The notes under the pieces: generated by a model
What the model saw: the letters and a program-made list of their open reading frames with translations, nothing else
What the model was told of the DNA's origin: nothing
Database searches by the model: none
Shown: in pieces, positions 98 through 61,345 of the stretch
Layout of the letters: every line of letters starts with the position of its first letter
Numbering within the stretch: the first letter of the stretch is position 1
NCBI GenBank assembly: GCA_902776835.1
Contig: CACYRK010000008.1
Coordinates: 1 to 64,000, forward strand
DNA from: an uncultured Bacteroidales bacterium
Lineage (GTDB): Bacteria; Bacteroidota; Bacteroidia; Bacteroidales; Muribaculaceae
Length of the DNA: 64,000 nucleotides
Direction of reading: 5' to 3'
Translations under genes and position numbers: made by a program

Positions 98-224
98 TGA
101 TGACAGATAACAGATGACAGATGACAGATGACAGATGACAGATGACGGATAACAGATAACGGAAACAGATGACGGATAACAGATAACGGAAACAGATGAC
201 GGATAACGGATAACGGATGACGGA
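98..224 (+). repeat. Heptamer tandem repeat (GATGACA/GATAACA/GATAACG units)
   Basis: About 18 consecutive copies of a 7-bp unit: several exact GATGACA copies, then GATGACG, GATAACA and GATAACG, interrupted twice by a 6-bp GAAACA. A higher-order block of about 27 bp (GATGACG, GATAACA, GATAACG, GAAACA) occurs twice. It begins about 10 nt after the stop of the left-edge gene and reads in its sense. The same unit, in minus-strand sense, recurs at 18676-18777 and 54328-54367. Confidence 0.9.
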
Positions 225-18521: not shown

Positions 18522-18550
18522 GCCCCGCGCACAACTTTTTCTAAAAAAAA

Positions 18551-18620
18551 TGGAGCAATGGGGCAAATGGGGCAATGGGGCAAATGGGTTAAATGGGTGT
18601 TATGGGGCAAATGAGACAAA
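18551..18620. repeat. Degenerate 8-9-bp tandem repeat (ATGGGGCAA-type units)
   Basis: About seven units of the form ATGGGGCAA, ATGGGGCA or ATGGGTTAA. Related in the ATGGG core to the nonamer array at 24922-24988. It lies between the rpsF promoter and the heptamer array. No gene is seen in 18441-18797. Confidence 0.8.
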
Positions 18621-18675
18621 TTGTCACTATCACCCACCGGCAAGCAACAGCGGCACGTCGTGTGACGCGCCGCCA

Positions 18676-18777
18676 TCTGTTAACCATTATCTGTTATCTG
18701 TTATCTGTTATCTGTTATCTGTTATCTGTTAACTGTTATCTGTTATCTGTTAACTGTTATCTATAATCTGTAATCTT
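18676..18777 (-). repeat. Heptamer tandem repeat (AGATAAC units in minus-strand sense)
   Basis: About 14 units of TCTGTTA, with TCTGTTAAC and TCTATAA variants, in plus-strand terms. Read on the minus strand, as in the thioredoxin-like gene's transcript, it is GATAACA repeated, the same unit as at 98-224. It begins about 20 nt after the stop of the gene at 18798, separated from it by the 16-bp palindrome CAATGGCATGCCATTG (18779-18794). Confidence 0.92.
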
Positions 18778-18797
18778 TCAATGGCATGCCATTGAAC

Positions 18798-19286
18798 TCA
18801 CTTGCCGAGCATTTGATTGATGGCTTCGGTGATTTCGTCTTTCGGGTGAAGACCCACCATGCCATCAGGGGTGCCTTCCATCGGGCAGAAGATCAGCAAG
18901 GGGATGCTGCTCACGCCGAAGGCTTGTGCCAGCGGACGGTTTTCGTCCACGTCGATGCTGTAGAAGTCGACCTTTCCCGCATACTCCTTAGCGAGATCTT
19001 TGAGGATGGGGGCCAGTTGACGGCAGGGGCCACACCAGGTGGCGTTGAAGTCAATCACACAGGGTCGCTGACCTATGAATTTCCACTCGTCGGCATGCCA
19101 GTCGGCAACCAACTGTGCAAACTGGTCCATGTCGATGGCACGAACCTCGCCAACGGGGGCGGCGGCCATTTCGACATCTTGCGACTCGGCTTCAGGCAGT
19201 TGCTTTTGTTGCTCCTGTGCACAGGCAGCCAGGCTCACCAGCAGGGCAGCCAGGCTAAAAATCAGTTTTGAAAAATTGTGTTTCAT
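18798..19286 (-). CDS. Thioredoxin-family lipoprotein
   Basis: 162 residues. A lipoprotein signal peptide ends in LAAC with Cys22 as the lipidation site. A linker to about residue 50 leads into a thioredoxin domain with the active site WCGPC (84-88) and the cis-proline segment VSSIPLLIF near 127. Probably a periplasmic or membrane-attached thiol-disulphide reductase. It follows the DUF4301 gene on the same strand; the 35-nt gap is filled by a heptamer repeat running up to the ATG. ATG 19286 is chosen because it opens directly into the signal peptide. Confidence 0.93.
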   Translation of the reverse strand: MKHNFSKLIFSLAALLVSLAACAQEQQKQLPEAESQDVEMAAAPVGEVRAIDMDQFAQLVADWHADEWKFIGQRPCVIDFNATWCGPCRQLAPILKDLAKEYAGKVDFYSIDVDENRPLAQAFGVSSIPLLIFCPMEGTPDGMVGLHPKDEITEAINQMLGK

Positions 19287-19321
19287 ATCTTTAATCTATA
19301 ATCTATAATCTTTAATCTAAA
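19287..19321 (-). repeat. Intercistronic heptamer repeat filling a 35-nt gap
   Basis: Five units of ATCTTTA or ATCTATA (plus-strand terms). In minus-strand sense it runs from the TGA stop of the DUF4301 gene to the ATG of the thioredoxin gene, with nothing else in the gap. A ribosome binding site of the Shine-Dalgarno type is not visible. Confidence 0.9.
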
Positions 19322-20836
19322 TCATTGGTGCTGAGGGCGCAGCAGGTCGTTGACAGTCTTCACGGGGTTGAAAGTCTCGATGGGCACCTCAACGAAGACG
19401 GTGTTCCAATCGCTCATCGAGCCGTTCCACAGTCCGGGCAACTCGAGCGCCTTGATTTCCACGCCGTCCTTCGACTTGTTGCTGATTAAGCCGGTGTCGG
19501 GGTCGACAAACTGCTTGAGGTCGAACTTCTCGCCCTTGTAGTCCTTGATGTAGCACACCAGGTCCACCGGGTTGAAGTGCGTGCCGCTGTTCATCATCTC
19601 CACGGCGCGCGCGTCGTCGGGATTGATTTGTGCCGCCTCGAGCACCTGCGGCGAGTAACTGCCGTCGGGATTGTAGGCCAGGTACGGTCCTCCACCCGGC
19701 TCACCCTCGTTGCGCACCATGCCACACACCCTGATGGGGCGGTTGAGTTTACGGCGCAGGTAAGCGGCGAGTTCTTCGCTGCTCATGGTTGCTGTGGCAG
19801 GCGAGTGTGTGAACAGGTCGCGCTCGACAAAGGCGAGCATCGCCTTCAGGTCGGCCTCAGAGACATTGCCGGCGTCGAGACGACGCAGGTTCTTGGCAAT
19901 TTCGCGCTGCAAGTACACCAGGTATCCGGCAATCAACTTCTTATATCGCGTGGTGACGTTGCGCAAGCGCGAAGGCACCACGTTGTCGATGTTCTTGACA
20001 AAAATCACGTCGGCATCGCGCTCATTGAGGTTCTCGATGAGAGCGCCATGTCCGGCGGGGCGGAAGAGCAGGTTGCCGTTGGCGTCGCGATACGGGGTGT
20101 TATCGGTGTTGACGGCAATGGTGTCGGTCGACGCTTTCTGCTCGCTCATGGTGACGTTGTAGGTCACGCCCCACACCTTCTGCATAAAGGGCACCTTAGC
20201 GGCAAGCAGTTTCTCAAACTCACGGCGATGCTCGGGCGAGACGGTGAAGTGGAGGTTGACACGGCGGTTGCGGTCGGCGGCATATTGTGCGCCCTCCTCG
20301 AGGTGTTCCTCGACGGGGGTGTGCACCGAGCCGCCCGCTGCGCGGTGGAACTTAAGCAAGCCCTTGGGCAGCGCGCCATAGTTCAGGCCTTTGGCGTCAA
20401 GCAGAGCCCGTGCCACATCGGCGTGGCGCTTGTCGGCCATAAGGTCGTCGATGTTTTTGCTATAAAGTTCAACACAAGCCTTATTGAGCAGCGGGAAAAA
20501 GGCGAAATTCTTGATGTGAGCAAAGAAAGCCTCCTCGAATGGCGTCGACGGCTCATTCCTGCCCGAGTTGACAAAGGCAAACAAATCCTTGAACATGCGG
20601 CTGGCCGCGCCCGAAGCCGGCACAAACTTCTCGATTGTTCCGGTAAATTCCTTCCACAAACGCAGGCATTGAGTAGCCTTCTTGTCGTCGAGGCGCACGA
20701 TGCCGTTTTCTACGGTGGCCACTGCCTCGATTTTTAGCGCTGGGAAGCCGGCGGCGAAACGCTTCAATTGAGCGTCGATGGTCGACTCGGTGATTCCCTT
20801 TGCCTCGATGAGTTTTAAATCGTCTTGATTCAGCAT
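19322..20836 (-). CDS. DUF4301 family protein
   Basis: 504 residues, cytoplasmic with no signal peptide or membrane segment. It matches the DUF4301 family of Bacteroidota; the N-terminal third has FVPASGAASRMFK (about 72-84) and the middle has LFRPAGHGALIENLNERDAD. The glycine-rich N-terminal motif and the GHGALIENLN segment recall sugar-nucleotidyltransferase folds, but this is only a resemblance and no function is established. It has its own promoter-like -7 box at 20923-20930 and shares a heptamer-filled gap with the downstream thioredoxin gene, so the two may be co-transcribed. It diverges from the relA gene. Confidence 0.88.
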   Translation of the reverse strand: MLNQDDLKLIEAKGITESTIDAQLKRFAAGFPALKIEAVATVENGIVRLDDKKATQCLRLWKEFTGTIEKFVPASGAASRMFKDLFAFVNSGRNEPSTPFEEAFFAHIKNFAFFPLLNKACVELYSKNIDDLMADKRHADVARALLDAKGLNYGALPKGLLKFHRAAGGSVHTPVEEHLEEGAQYAADRNRRVNLHFTVSPEHRREFEKLLAAKVPFMQKVWGVTYNVTMSEQKASTDTIAVNTDNTPYRDANGNLLFRPAGHGALIENLNERDADVIFVKNIDNVVPSRLRNVTTRYKKLIAGYLVYLQREIAKNLRRLDAGNVSEADLKAMLAFVERDLFTHSPATATMSSEELAAYLRRKLNRPIRVCGMVRNEGEPGGGPYLAYNPDGSYSPQVLEAAQINPDDARAVEMMNSGTHFNPVDLVCYIKDYKGEKFDLKQFVDPDTGLISNKSKDGVEIKALELPGLWNGSMSDWNTVFVEVPIETFNPVKTVNDLLRPQHQ

Positions 20837-24921: not shown

Positions 24922-24988
24922 AATGGGTCTAATGGGTCTAATGGGACTAATGGGACCCATTCGCCTCATTTGACCCATTGGACCCATA
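24922..24988 (+). repeat. Nonamer tandem repeat (AATGGGTCT) with inverted copies
   Basis: Four consecutive copies of AATGGGTCT or AATGGGACT starting 7 nt after the BspA-like stop codon, followed by three words in the opposite orientation (ACCCATT and similar). The transcript could fold on itself, so this may serve as a 3'-end hairpin for the gene. Confidence 0.85.
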
Positions 24989-31223: not shown

Positions 31224-33839
31224 TTACTCATCTTTGCCTAGAAGGATGTTGATTTCGTCGTTGATGTCCGAGCCGTTTATCTCGTCATCCTCGTGCACGT
31301 TAGCGCGGCCGTCATAGTTGTCGGCGCTATCCTTGCCCAGAATGATATTGATGAGAATGTTCAGGTCGGCACCATTGACCTCGCCGTCGTTGTTTACATC
31401 ACCACGCTTGTAGACGCGGATGTTGCAAGTGGCAGTCAGGTTGCTGCCATCGGCGGTGGTTGCGGTAATCACGGCATCGCCGCCCTTAACAGCGGTCACC
31501 AGGCCGTTCTCGTCGACAGTTGCGATAGTCTCGTCGCTGGTGCTCCAAGTCACGTCGCCATTGGTAACATTCTCGGGAAGCACGGTAGCCTCGAGTTGCA
31601 GAGTCTGACCCTTGTACATGAATGCGCTGGTCTCGTTCAGTTCGATGCTGGTGGCGAGAATCGGGTTGACAGTGATGGCGCAGGTAGCGCTCAGTTCGCT
31701 GCCATCGGTGGTAGTGGCGGTGATGGTCACGTTGCCGGGGGCAACGGCGGTCACCAGACCGTTCTCAACCGTTGCGATGGCCTCGTCGCTCGAAGTCCAA
31801 GCCAGGTCGTCGCTGGTCACGTTCTCAGGAAGAACGGTAGCGGTGAGTTGCAGAGTCTCGCCGATGTTCATCGTAGCCTCGGTCTTGTCGAGAGCGATGC
31901 TCTCAGCAAGAATCGGGTTGACGGTGATAGCGCAAGTGGCAGTCAGTTCGGTGCCGTCGGCAGTGGTGGCGGTGATGGTCACGTTGCCTACTGCGAGGGC
32001 GGTAACCAGACCGTTCTCAACCGTTGCGATAGCCTCGTCGCTGGTGCTCCAGGTCACGTCGCCGTTGGTGACGTTCTCAGGAAGCACGGTAGCGGTAAGT
32101 TGCAGAGTCTCGCCGATAAGCATAGTGGCCTCGGTCTTATCGAGAGCAATGCTTGTAGCCACGATCGGGTTGACAGTGATTGCGCAGGTGGCAGTCAGTT
32201 CGGTGCCGTCGGCAGTGGTGGCGGTGATGGTCACGTTGCCTACTGCGAGGGCAGTCACCAGACCGTTCTCAACCGTTGCGATAGCCTCGTCGCTGGTGCT
32301 CCAGGTCACGTCGCCGTTGGTGACATTCTCGGGAAGCACGGTAGCGGTGAGTTGCAGAGTCTCGCCAATGAGCATAGTTGCCTCGGTCTTGTCGAGAGCG
32401 ATGCTTGTAGCCACGATCGGGTTGACCGTGATTGCACAAGTGGCAGTCAGTTCGGTGCCGTCGGCAGTGGTGGCGGTAATGGTCACATTGCCTACTGCGA
32501 GGGCAGTCACCAGACCGTTTTCAACCGTTGCGATAGCCTCGTCGCTGGTGCTCCAGGTCACATCGCCGTTGGTAACGTTCTCGGGAAGCACGGTAGCGGT
32601 GAGTTGCAGAGTCTCGCCGATGAGCATAGCAGCCTCGGTCTTGTCGAGGGTGATGCTTGTAGCCACAATCGGGTTGACCGTGATGGCGCAAGTGGCAGTC
32701 AGTTCGGTGCCGTCGGCAGTAGTGGCGGTGATAGTTACGTTGCCTACTGCAAGGGCGGTCACCAGACCGTTCTCGTCGACAGTTGCGATGGTGGCATCGC
32801 TGGTGCTCCAGGTCACGTCGCCGTTAGCAACATTCTCAGGAAGCACGGTAGCGGTGAGTTGCAGAGTCTCGCCGATGAGCATCGTGGCCTCGGTCTTGTC
32901 GAGGGTGATGCTTGTAGCCACAATTGGGTTGACCGTGATGGCGCAGGTGGCAGTCAGTTCGGTGCCGTCGGCAGTGGTGGCGGTGATGGTCACATTGCCT
33001 ACTGCGAGGGCGGTAACCAGACCGTTCTCGTCGACAGTTGCGATGGTGGCATCGCTGGTGCTCCAGGTCACGTCGCCGTTGGTAACGTCGGCAGGAAGAA
33101 CAGTTGCATTAAGTTGCAGCGTCTCACCTACGGTCATCGTTGCCTCGGTCTTGTCGAGGGCAATACTTGCGGCATTGCGGATGATGTTGATGTTGAAGAT
33201 GTCGGTGGTGTTGTAGTAGAATGCCGAAGGCTCATCAGCCATGACAAACTTAACAGCACTCATCGGCATGTCGAGTGTGGTGCCCGGCGTAAGGCTTGCA
33301 TCGGCCTTCAGCGTAATCAGGGCATACTCAAACTTGCCGGTAGGATAGGCATGCATCATGTCGGCGTTCACAAGTCCATAGCCGAGTACACGCAGCGTGT
33401 GCGATGCTTCGACGTAGTTACCTGTGACGCTAATGTCGGCATACACCGTACCAGCGTCCTCAAATTGCAGTTCCGAGCCGCGAATTGTGCTTACGACCGA
33501 GATGCCTTCGGGCAAAACCAGGTCGAAGTAAACGACGCGGGGACAGCACTCATCACGATAAGAAGCCATCACCGAGGTGTCGAAATAAACCGGCACCGTG
33601 ACGTTCTCACCGGGTTGCACAACAATCTCATCAATAGATAATGGATTTGTGCTAAGGTCGGTGCGTGTTTCGGCCGCAGCGGCCTTAGCACGCAAGCTCA
33701 CCCGATTGTTCGAGAGAGCTTCGGCCTCACTCAGGTAGCGGTCGAACGTAGCACGGTCGACCAACTGAGCCGAGGCAACCAGGCCAATCAGCATGAAAGC
33801 GACGGCCATGATTCTCTTCGGTGTGTACAAATACTTCAT
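31224..33839 (-). CDS. Secreted Big_2 repeat protein with cohesin-like N-terminus and dockerin-like tail
   Basis: 871 residues. Signal peptide to about residue 24 (VASA). Residues about 70-225 (VVQPGENVTVPVYF to the FVMADEPSAFYY region) have the length and pattern of a cohesin-like beta-sandwich, which I infer without a search. Seven Big_2 (Ig-like) repeats of 79-80 residues follow, each like SIALDKTEATMLIGETLQL, then LPENVTNGDVTWSTSD. The last 65 residues are a two-loop dockerin-like domain (GDVNNDGEVNGADLNILIN, then EINGSDINDEINILLG). Repeats 3-5 are near identical at DNA level. It would be a surface adhesin or scaffold. It is divergent from the DUF4855 gene. Confidence 0.9.
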   Translation of the reverse strand: MKYLYTPKRIMAVAFMLIGLVASAQLVDRATFDRYLSEAEALSNNRVSLRAKAAAAETRTDLSTNPLSIDEIVVQPGENVTVPVYFDTSVMASYRDECCPRVVYFDLVLPEGISVVSTIRGSELQFEDAGTVYADISVTGNYVEASHTLRVLGYGLVNADMMHAYPTGKFEYALITLKADASLTPGTTLDMPMSAVKFVMADEPSAFYYNTTDIFNINIIRNAASIALDKTEATMTVGETLQLNATVLPADVTNGDVTWSTSDATIATVDENGLVTALAVGNVTITATTADGTELTATCAITVNPIVATSITLDKTEATMLIGETLQLTATVLPENVANGDVTWSTSDATIATVDENGLVTALAVGNVTITATTADGTELTATCAITVNPIVATSITLDKTEAAMLIGETLQLTATVLPENVTNGDVTWSTSDEAIATVENGLVTALAVGNVTITATTADGTELTATCAITVNPIVATSIALDKTEATMLIGETLQLTATVLPENVTNGDVTWSTSDEAIATVENGLVTALAVGNVTITATTADGTELTATCAITVNPIVATSIALDKTEATMLIGETLQLTATVLPENVTNGDVTWSTSDEAIATVENGLVTALAVGNVTITATTADGTELTATCAITVNPILAESIALDKTEATMNIGETLQLTATVLPENVTSDDLAWTSSDEAIATVENGLVTAVAPGNVTITATTTDGSELSATCAITVNPILATSIELNETSAFMYKGQTLQLEATVLPENVTNGDVTWSTSDETIATVDENGLVTAVKGGDAVITATTADGSNLTATCNIRVYKRGDVNNDGEVNGADLNILINIILGKDSADNYDGRANVHEDDEINGSDINDEINILLGKDE
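31660..33150 (-). repeat. Tandem 237-240-bp repeats encoding Big_2 domains
   Basis: Seven direct repeats within the gene. The central copies differ at only a few positions, so unequal recombination could change the copy number. The open frames on the opposite strand here are mirror artefacts of the repeats. Confidence 0.9.
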
Positions 33840-49839: not shown

Positions 49840-49903
49840 CTTAGAGCCCCTAGAGATTCTATATTTCCTAGAGATTCTAGAGCCCCTAGAGATTCTAGAG
49901 GTC
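49840..49903 (-). repeat. Nonamer tandem repeat (CTAGAATCT units)
   Basis: Seven or so 9-bp words such as CTAGAGATT and CTAGAGCCC in plus-strand terms; in minus-strand sense CTAGAATCT. Related to the array at 61294-61345 (CTAGAACCT). It lies downstream of the tRNA-Arg terminator. The rest of 49639-49955 has no gene. Confidence 0.85.
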
Positions 49904-54327: not shown

Positions 54328-54367
54328 AACTGTTAACTGTTATCTGTTAACTGTTATCTATAATCTG
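54328..54367 (-). repeat. Heptamer tandem repeat after the ROK glucokinase gene
   Basis: Five to six units of ACTGTTA, ATCTGTTA or TCTATAA in plus-strand terms. In minus-strand sense it starts 5 nt after the stop of the glucokinase gene and reads GATAACA-like, as at 18676-18777. Confidence 0.85.
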
Positions 54368-54371
54368 GAAT

Positions 54372-55334
54372 TTACTCTTTAACTTCCCAGCCGAGTGCCG
54401 AAGCGCCGAGGATGGCAGCGTCGGCTTCCTTCATCTGGCTGAAGATGATTTTGGCCTTTCCGCGGAAAATCGACATCACATTTTTGTCGTAGGCTTCCTG
54501 GATGGGCTTCATAATCAGGTCGCCGCTCTTAGCGAGTCCGCCAAAGATCACAAATGCCTCAGGGCTTGAGAATGCGGTGAAGTCGGCCAGTGCCTCACCC
54601 AGAATGGTGCCGGTGTAGTCGAAGATTTCCTTAGCAAGTTTGTCGCCAGCCATTGCTGCGTCGTAGACGTCCTTGCTGGTGATGCTGTCGGGGTCGAGTT
54701 CACGCAGTTTGCTCTTGTCCTTGCGAATGTCGAGGAACTCACGTGCAGTGCGTGCCACGCCCGTAGCCGAGCAGTAAGCCTCGAGGCAACCGGTGCGCCC
54801 GCAGCCGCAGGTGCGGCCATTGTTGCGCTTCACCGTTACGTGGCCCAACTCACCGGCAAAGCCGTCGTGGCCGTAGACCATCTGACCGTTAATCACGATA
54901 CCGCTACCCACACCAGTGCCAAGGGTAATCATGATGAAGTCCTTCATACCGCGGGCGGCGCCATAGGTCATCTCGCCGATGGCGGCGGCGTTGGCGTCGT
55001 TGGTGATGATGCACGGAATGCCAAATTTCTTTGTCACGATGTCGGCCAGGGGTATTGGCGTAGGCCACGGCAGGTTCACGCCGTCCTCGATGACGCCAGT
55101 ATAGTAATTGGCGTTGGGGGCGCCGATGCCGATGCCGTTGATTTTGTCCTCAGCACCCACGGCATCCATGATGCGTGTGATTTCGGTGTAGAGTTCATCG
55201 ATGTAATCGTCGATGTTGCTGTGCTTAGCGGTCTTGATTGAATCGCTTGCGATCACGTTGCCACGTGCGTCCACAATACCGAAGGCGGTGTTAGTTCCGC
55301 CCATGTCGATACCTATTACATAAGGTTTTGCCAT
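54372..55334 (-). CDS. ROK-family glucokinase
   Basis: 320 residues. Nucleotide-binding GIDMGGTNTAFGI (9-21), the catalytic region NDANAAAIGE near 124, and a zinc site CGCGRTGCLEAYCSA near 180-195. ROK kinases phosphorylate glucose or related hexoses at C6 with ATP; glucose is most likely here, since the sequence pattern fits the NagC-like glucokinase subfamily. Its promoter TAAATTTG (55396-55389 on the minus strand) has a TTTG box 20 nt upstream (55420-55417). The ORF starts at ATG 55334. Confidence 0.93.
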   Translation of the reverse strand: MAKPYVIGIDMGGTNTAFGIVDARGNVIASDSIKTAKHSNIDDYIDELYTEITRIMDAVGAEDKINGIGIGAPNANYYTGVIEDGVNLPWPTPIPLADIVTKKFGIPCIITNDANAAAIGEMTYGAARGMKDFIMITLGTGVGSGIVINGQMVYGHDGFAGELGHVTVKRNNGRTCGCGRTGCLEAYCSATGVARTAREFLDIRKDKSKLRELDPDSITSKDVYDAAMAGDKLAKEIFDYTGTILGEALADFTAFSSPEAFVIFGGLAKSGDLIMKPIQEAYDKNVMSIFRGKAKIIFSQMKEADAAILGASALGWEVKE

Positions 55335-59866: not shown

Positions 59867-59897
59867 ATCTATAATCTATAATCTATAATCTATAATC
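59867..59897 (-). repeat. Heptamer tandem repeat (GATTATA) starting at the pstS-like stop
   Basis: About four and a half perfect units (ATCTATA in plus-strand terms). In minus-strand sense it begins on the base right after the TGA of the PstS-like gene (59898-59900), with no gap. A stem formed by AGAGGCAATTT (59828-59838) and AAATTTGCCTCT (59846-59857) lies beyond it. No gene lies between it and the TPR start at 59638. Confidence 0.92.
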
Positions 59898-60914
59898 TCA
59901 GTATGTTTCCACCATGCGCACCGGCTCGGCTGCGGGCAGCACGCCGGTTTGCAGGATAATCTTCTGCCCTATCACTCCGGTGAGGAATGAGAAGAATCCG
60001 TGGTCGAGCGTTCCGCTGGCCGATGCGTCGATAGCCCATACTACCCGCACGAGGGGATACTCGCCGTTGTTGATGTAGTACTGGTAGGGCTTGCGCGGCT
60101 GCAACTGGTCGTCGGCACGCACCGGCATCACCTTGATGCGGTCGGTGAACTCGATTGCCGAGGGGTCGTTGTTGGCGTTGAGTTGCTCCACACGTTCGTC
60201 GACACTCATGGCCTTGCCACCCATGTCGGCGGTAATCCAACTCACGCCGATGAAGCCGATGGCGTTTTTGTGGGCCTCGACAGCCTTAAACACGTCCTCG
60301 GTCGATTTCTGTGCGAATACGTTGTCGCCGAACTTCTGTCCGGGCTCCAACATCTTGCTCTGCATGTAGTTGATAATCCCGCAGCCATTGCTCTCGAAGA
60401 CAATCTCGATGTCCTTGTCGCGCAAGGCCTTGGTGGGGGTTATCTCGCTCCATTTCTTGAACTTACCCGAGAAAATCTCGCGCAGGTCGCCCATCGAGAG
60501 TTGGTCGATGTCGTTGTCTTTGTTGACGATGATTGCCACAGCATCAACGGCAATCTTGCGCGAGCGGTGTGCGCGGTTTTGCAACTGCAACTTCTCACGC
60601 TGGGCGTCGGTGAGGTCGCGCGATGTGATGATCAGGTCGACCTTGCGTTTCAGCAGCGAGTCGAGGGCGTCGGCCTCGGGCTGATAGCGGCACAGGATGC
60701 TCGCATCGGGATAGGTGTACTCAAAGACCTCTATTTCCTGGTCGAGCACATTCTGGAACGACTCGTCGCAGATAATCACGGCAGTGCCGCTGGTGCTGGA
60801 GTTGGTCGACTGCTTGTTGTTGCAGGCTGCCAGCAGCACGACGGCTGCCAGCAGCACGACGGCTGCCAGCAGTGCCAGATAGTGGAGTTTATGTGTCATA
60901 ACGCTATTGTGCAT
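59898..60914 (-). CDS. PstS-like phosphate-binding lipoprotein
   Basis: 338 residues from ATG 60914; ATG 60899 would remove the first five. The signal peptide has a duplicated LLAAVV, then the lipobox LLAAC (Cys 26 counted from the shorter start, 31 from the longer). The mature domain is a PBP-like type II fold (TAVIICDESFQNVLDQEIEVF, then YQPEADALDSLLKRKVDLII and KIAVDAVAIIVNKDN, SMGDLREIFSGKFKKWSEI). No pstCAB transporter genes are adjacent; in Bacteroidota such proteins are often found beside TonB-ExbD clusters. Follows the 80-aa membrane gene. Confidence 0.88.
   Translation of the reverse strand: MHNSVMTHKLHYLALLAAVVLLAAVVLLAACNNKQSTNSSTSGTAVIICDESFQNVLDQEIEVFEYTYPDASILCRYQPEADALDSLLKRKVDLIITSRDLTDAQREKLQLQNRAHRSRKIAVDAVAIIVNKDNDIDQLSMGDLREIFSGKFKKWSEITPTKALRDKDIEIVFESNGCGIINYMQSKMLEPGQKFGDNVFAQKSTEDVFKAVEAHKNAIGFIGVSWITADMGGKAMSVDERVEQLNANNDPSAIEFTDRIKVMPVRADDQLQPRKPYQYYINNGEYPLVRVVWAIDASASGTLDHGFFSFLTGVIGQKIILQTGVLPAAEPVRMVETY
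60825..60872 (-). repeat. 18-bp direct duplication inside the signal peptide of the PstS-like gene
   Basis: GGCTGCCAGCAGCACGAC occurs twice (60825-60842, 60843-60860) and a third partial copy (GGCTGCCAGCAG, 60861-60872) follows. It encodes LLAAVV twice and then LLAAC, in frame. Copy-number change would lengthen or shorten the hydrophobic core by six residues. Confidence 0.9.
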
Positions 60915-61231: not shown

Positions 61232-61293
61232 TGAAAAGGGCACTTTTGTTTTCATTTTTATGATAATTAACGCAATGCAGGGGGTTATTCTCT

Positions 61294-61345
61294 GGAGGTT
61301 CTAGTGATTCTAGAGGTTCAAGAGGTTCTAGAGGTTCTAGGGTTT
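61294..61345 (-). repeat. Nonamer tandem repeat (CTAGAACCT units in minus-strand sense)
   Basis: Five to six units of AGGTTCTAG in plus-strand terms. It lies beyond the tonB terminator, so in the 3' flank of tonB, and matches the unit at 49840-49903 except at one base. Confidence 0.88.

What the first reader, a model, noticed from the sequence alone, without database searches (positions are those of the whole stretch)
18676..18777. Heptamer tandem repeats, always in one sense, directly after stop codons
Seen directly: 7-bp tandem repeats related to GATAACA, GATGACA or GATTATA occur at 98-224, 18676-18777, 19287-19321, 54328-54367 and 59867-59897. At each place a gene ends within 0-21 nt, and the repeat reads GATWACA-like in the transcript sense of that gene (plus strand for the left-edge gene, minus strand for the other four). 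Five of five consistent orientations makes chance unlikely. It suggests a 3'-UTR function such as RNA-binding protein sites, RNA stability or transcription pausing, or a repeat-spreading mechanism that targets gene ends. I do not recognise it as a described element.
Basis: seen in the sequence. Interest (0 to 1): 0.8.

Follow-up and report, generated by a model that had tools for sequence, protein, structure and literature searches.

The report
Seven-base repeat arrays after genes
This gut-bacterium genome has about 56 runs of a seven-letter DNA repeat, most of them starting right after a gene's stop signal and reading the same way as that gene, a newly seen variant of a little-studied class of bacterial seven-base repeats that may come from copying errors or may act at RNA ends.

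Summary
All five window arrays exist, and the genome holds about 56 GATDAYA arrays (reversed-pattern control 0). All those examined are noncoding. 41 of 51 begin within 35 nt of the stop of a same-sense gene (13.6 expected for random place and orientation). Sense:antisense is 42:9 (p=3e-6), so the rule is strong but not absolute. (ii) The GATAACA expansion is lineage-specific, yet 7-bp repeats with other units are the commonest noncoding tandem repeats in the congeners sampled. (iii) Intrinsic terminators, where found, lie beyond the array, so it sits in the predicted 3'UTR. It best fits the known intergenic heptameric repeats of Xanthomonas/Nostoc (same ORF-proximal polarity) and TAACTGA repeats of Beggiatoaceae. 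I favour a mutational origin (slippage plus template switching at gene ends) over an RNA-binding function; units differ between species, and no retroelement template or target-site duplication was found. The hairpin-array junction is the new, unexplained part.

The parts
99..222 (+). GATAACA/GATGACA/GATGACG array, 16 recognised units, after the left-edge gene (stop TAG at 85-87)
   Evidence: small stem TTAGTGGACACTAA spans the stop
18675..18776 (-). heptamer array (GATTACA, GATTATA, then GATAACA with GTTAACA), the reported array
18777..18796 (-). stop-side hairpin TTCAATGG-CATG-CCATTGAA between the thioredoxin-like gene's stop (18798-18800) and the array
18646..18677 (-). 14-bp GC-rich hairpin at the far end of the array, terminator-like but without a clear T tract
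18798..19286 (-). thioredoxin-like gene that ends before the reported array
19287..19321 (-). GATTATA/GATTAAA array filling the gap between the 504-aa gene's stop (19322-19324) and the thioredoxin-like gene's ATG (19286)
54328..54367 (-). GATAACA/GTTAACA/GATTATA array after the ROK-family kinase gene (stop 54372-54374); terminator about 90 nt further on
59867..59897 (-). GATTATA x4 array touching the stop (59898-59900) of a PstS-like gene

Best explanation
The arrays are a lineage-specific family of intergenic heptanucleotide simple-sequence repeats that accumulate in the 3' untranslated stretch of genes. Shown: the 5' end of an array is pinned to a gene boundary, nearly always the stop codon of a same-sense gene, in many cases through a hairpin that ends at the first unit; the 3' end is free and runs towards the terminator or the next gene. 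Inferred: arrays are seeded at gene ends by template switching during replication or repair. The new strand snaps back and copies the end of the gene (the inverted copy), or starts from the stop codon itself, which belongs to the unit in some arrays; it then copies heptamers and grows by slippage in 7-nt steps. A seeded unit reaches other gene ends by ectopic copying, helped by microhomology between the stop codon and stop-containing units, and in the dockerin-type family by duplication of the gene end. Orientation and position would then reflect how arrays start and where growth is tolerated, not a dedicated protein that reads GAUAACA.
For: Period 7 is the commonest noncoding tandem period in this genome's stretches, in congeners and in other Bacteroidales while units differ. 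The expansion is confined to this lineage: 196 four-unit hits against at most 4 in 36 congeners, and the orthologous gene end in a relative carries a different heptamer. Hairpins end at the array start in 46% versus 3% of controls, many 3' arms being inverted copies of the gene's own end. With d<=2 the stop codon tends to lie in register with the array (partly a selection effect). Outside this genome, sense units hold a stop in 35 of 38 cases, 9:0 where the orientations differ. Known precedent with the same polarity (PMC4692102), which cites polymerase slippage as the reason for 7-nt units.
Against: Slippage alone does not explain one unit at many unrelated loci; a copying step in trans is required and was not seen. 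The limited alphabet (positions 4 and 6 vary, the rest are kept) could reflect constraint. Near-perfect stems of about 20 bp could be maintained by selection. In this genome the stop-in-unit bias is weak (10:7). No strain pair showing an empty site was available.
Confidence: 0.55

Rival explanations
1. A functional 3'-UTR element: the stop-side hairpin plus an unstructured AU-rich array acts at the RNA level, for example shielding the message from 3' exonucleases, binding an RNA-binding protein at 7-nt spacing, or setting transcript ends.
For: Sense orientation and 3'-UTR position; strong hairpins next to the array; at the reported site the array is an unpaired linker between two hairpins; units conserved at five of seven positions.
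Against: Present in one lineage only; congeners' same gene ends lack it or have other units; flanking genes are of mixed function; nine antisense cases; no Rfam family at the arrays.
Confidence: 0.25
2. Back-up stops: a 7-nt unit that contains a stop codon gives stops in all three frames, so arrays are kept as fail-safe terminators of translation.
For: Outside this genome sense units carry a stop in 35 of 38 cases, 9:0 where the orientations differ.
Against: In this genome 7 of 33 arrays have a sense unit without a stop, against 10 with a stop in the sense only; GATTACA, which has no stop, is common while GATAGCA, which would keep one, was not among the 40 commonest units. A stop lying in register can also come from arrays starting at stop codons.
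Confidence: 0.07
3. A mobile element or telomerase-like reverse transcriptase writes the heptamers onto hairpin-ended gene 3' ends.
For: One unit at many unlinked loci; hairpin then array, as if a 3' end were extended; internal 5'-to-3' polarity of units. DRT10 reverse transcriptases do make 9-nt tandem-repeat DNA from an RNA template (PMC12632851).
Against: The only two reverse transcriptases found are retron-type (III-A and VI-like), and the fetched DNA around them holds no heptamer template. No target-site duplication. Only 7 contigs in a collection of 2.9 million viral contigs carry GATWACA arrays. Hairpin sequences differ from locus to locus. No dedicated transposase search was made.
Confidence: 0.08

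Closest known systems
GGGAATC / GGGGA(C/T)T heptameric repeats of Xanthomonas and Nostoc (PMC4692102)
   Different: G-rich and G-quadruplex-forming there, AT-rich here; here a hairpin copying the gene end often precedes the array; sense bias is stronger here.
TAACTGA direct repeats of Beggiatoaceae, cyanobacteria and five Bacteroidetes (PMC4679880)
   Same: 7-bp unit one base from GATAACA after rotation (GATAACT), many intergenic sets, patchy across lineages, forward units hold stop codons in all frames.
   Different: In the Beggiatoaceae genome mostly just upstream of start codons; related heptamers rare there, while here four variants are mixed; no hairpin junction reported.
STRR heptanucleotides of filamentous cyanobacteria (PMC2670836; Mazel 1990 from own knowledge)
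   [quoted passage not shown] function unknown.
   Different: Other units; no systematic sense-after-stop rule known to me.
REP/BIME 3'-UTR palindromes of enterobacteria (own knowledge)
   Same: Stem-loops after stop codons that can protect messages; dispersed.
   Different: REPs share one palindrome sequence linked to a RAYT transposase; here each hairpin copies its own gene and is followed by heptamers.

Membership tests
Intergenic heptameric SSR class (Xanthomonas/Nostoc type) | tandem 7-bp units, intergenic, dispersed over the genome | tested here: met
   about 56 arrays on many contigs, all 56 in the fetched stretches noncoding
Intergenic heptameric SSR class (Xanthomonas/Nostoc type) | closer to the 5' neighbouring ORF, rare between divergent ORFs | tested here: met
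   41 of 51 within 35 nt of a sense stop; one divergent call of 56, probably a missed gene
Intergenic heptameric SSR class (Xanthomonas/Nostoc type) | G-rich, G-quadruplex-forming unit | tested here: not met
   units GATAACA/GATTATA/GATTACA/GATGACA
TAACTGA repeats | unit TAACTGA | tested here: not met
   unit GATDAYA; GATAACT not among the 40 commonest units
TAACTGA repeats | sets mostly just upstream of start codons | tested here: not met
   anchored to stops; some short gaps are filled from stop to start
DRT10-type tandem-repeat synthesis | DRT10 reverse transcriptase with template RNA | tested here: not met
   only two retron-type RTs, no template nearby; genome is 97.6% complete
Transposable element | target-site duplication at the insert | tested here: not met
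   no flanking direct repeat of 6+ nt apart from two T-rich runs
REP/RAYT elements | one conserved palindrome and a RAYT transposase | tested here: inconclusive
   palindromes differ at each locus; RAYT gene not searched for

The most novel reading that the evidence does not exclude
A dedicated activity extends snapped-back gene 3' ends with a species-specific heptamer, telomere-like: first an inverted copy of the coding tail, then GATTATA, then GATAACA units, so gene ends across these Bacteroidales are 'capped' by a directed repeat-writing process.
Probability: 0.07. Interest if true: 0.9.

Novelty: new variant of a known kind. Interest (0 to 1): 0.46.

Why it matters
PMC4692102 says heptameric repeats are over-represented among bacterial SSRs, with little detailed study and no known role. 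Here a genus whose sampled members carry their own heptamers gives an evolutionary series, a fixed anchor (stop codon, often with a hairpin) and a strong polarity. The inverted copy of the coding tail at the junction points to template switching as the starting event. Together these make the open question of how such repeats arise and spread testable by comparing strains.

Tried and rejected
Retron or telomerase-like reverse transcriptase as writer: searched, no template found. Phage-borne element: 7 viral contigs carry the pattern (loci not examined further). Transposition: no target-site duplications. Known structured RNA: only a tRNA in the window. Intrinsic-terminator role of the stop hairpin: no T tract, and no terminator was scored between stop and array while six lie beyond it. 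Selection for stops in all frames: weak in this genome. Hairpin junction as a rule for all congeners: pooled 7 of 41 versus 55 of 604 controls, p=0.10; one genome, G025, 4 of 8, was picked after the fact. The exact heptamer string gave no hit in the paper library.

Full report
1. Observation. TRF confirms all five arrays at the stated places and the flanking sequence confirms the stops. The window lies in G000, a 3.09-Mb, 53-contig genome; the nearest relatives of a window protein in the named collection are Muribaculaceae and other Bacteroidales MAGs at 70-75% identity. Three tandem units of GATDAYR occur 252 times against 0 for the reversed pattern. Array-start patterns give about 56 separate arrays.

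2. Position and orientation. I fetched 40 stretches around arrays and called genes with a simple codon-usage caller, so single calls can be wrong. All 56 arrays found in these stretches and the window are outside genes, although noncoding DNA is only 17% of them. Between co-directional genes 34 are sense-after-stop and 9 antisense (p=1.7e-4). Between convergent genes 8 of 8 scored arrays follow the sense of the nearer stop. 41 of 51 begin within 35 nt of a sense stop, where random place and orientation give 13.6 (maximum 24 of 5000 permutations) and random orientation at the real places 22.6. Pfam matches show that several antisense neighbours are real genes, such as formyl transferase and glycerate kinase; in 6 of 9 antisense cases it is again the array's 5' end that is nearer a gene.

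3. Anatomy. In 19 of 41 sense arrays a stem scoring 6 or more Watson-Crick pairs ends within a few bases of the first unit, against 3% of control gene ends at the same offsets and 3% of shuffles; p=6e-14, or 6e-9 without the dockerin-type paralogs. Often the stem spans the stop codon, its 5' arm being the last codons of the gene and its 3' arm their reverse complement: ATCAATCTAATTCTTGGCAA-TTGAT-TTGCCAAGGATTAGATTGAT in L033 (z=-9.6), GGAATATGAGTGATAAT...ATTATCACTCATATTCC in L045 (z=-6.4). Among nine paralogous dockerin-type gene ends the 3' arms fit their own genes better than permuted partners as a set, though three individual arms fit a paralog slightly better. Gene ends of the same kind in other genomes carry no array and as a rule no such stem; L172 has a long hairpin without an array. 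In a genome-wide search of this genome 5 of 11 such ends have a full array and one a trace; two array-less ends (L156, L159) have short stop-spanning stems, so a hairpin can exist without an array. Inside arrays 342 of 474 in-step heptamers are GATAACA, GATTATA, GATTACA or GATGACA; GATTATA leads at the 5' end (30 of 57 first units) and declines towards the 3' end. Terminators were scored beyond 6 arrays and never between stop and array. At the reported site the array is mostly an unpaired linker between an 8-bp stop-side hairpin and a 14-bp GC-rich hairpin.

4. Relatives. Four-unit arrays of this family occur at most 4 times in any of 36 congeners, against 196 here; one genome of another family in the order has 36 hits, mainly GATTATG. 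At the thioredoxin locus relatives have no GATAACA array, but L071 has TAGTTGA/TAGTTAA heptamers at the same stop. Unit-agnostic scans show period 7 to be the commonest noncoding period in this genome's stretches (54 arrays; biased by how they were chosen), in sampled congeners (61) and in other Bacteroidales (30), with units that differ by genome: AGTTAAG, GATTAGA, GAGTTTA, AATTCAT, GTGCATT. GATTAGA arrays occur in 18 of 101 genomes of the genus. In several congeners the array runs through the stop codon in register. Outside this genome sense units next to a stop hold a stop codon in 35 of 38 cases, 9:0 where the two orientations differ.

5. Mechanism. Unit length is conserved while sequence is not, which argues for a copying process rather than a sequence-read signal. 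The junction (inverted copy of the gene end, or the stop codon itself, then heptamers) looks like template switching followed by slippage. That step is inferred; no strain pair was available to see it happen. Copying in trans is required to explain one unit family at about 56 loci. Writers were sought: the two reverse transcriptases are retron-type with no matching template in the fetched DNA, and there are no target-site duplications. An RNA role of hairpin plus array remains possible and is the main rival.

6. Known relatives. PMC4692102 describes intergenic heptameric repeats in Xanthomonas and Nostoc with the same closeness to the 5' neighbouring ORF and the same polarity, and cites the view that a 7-nt unit reflects the DNA segment held by the polymerase. 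PMC4679880 describes TAACTGA arrays, one base from GATAACA after rotation, in the main genome set before start codons. PMC2670836 summarises cyanobacterial 7-bp STRRs. The present arrays belong to this broad kind by unit size and position but fail defining sequence or position features of each named family; the hairpin junction is the new part.

Noticed in passing
window 18548-18621, 24922-24987, 49842-49900, 61291-61344: Intergenic 9-bp tandem arrays (AAATGGGGC, AATGGGTCT with its inverse GACCCATTC, CTAGAGATT, TCTAGAGGT); a second repeat class, period 9, also common in relatives.
   Followed up: partly
L033 7586-7616, L055 8971-9144 and 11066-11111, L252 1266-1394: A second heptamer family, TGCATTG/TGCATTA, often just 3' of GATAACA arrays and also in congeners G008 and G010.
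   Followed up: partly
L062 14303 and 4010; L049 6973: In some tandem gene pairs the last heptamer supplies the next gene's start codon (GATAATG, GATTATG).
   Followed up: no
L033, L037, L039, L045, L048, L054, L057, L059, L061, L067: Genes ending in a dockerin-like tail (G.DGNDLNKLINIILGK*) are strongly over-represented among array-bearing genes of this genome.
   Followed up: partly
L256 (G007 C57): 17 heptamer arrays in one 20-kb stretch of a congener, mostly AGTTAAG-type.
   Followed up: no
L189 and L190: Two retron-type reverse transcriptases (III-A-like and VI-like) in this genome.
   Followed up: yes
window 31492-33169: 252-bp tandem repeats, 6.6 copies, inside an 871-aa coding sequence on the minus strand.
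   Followed up: no
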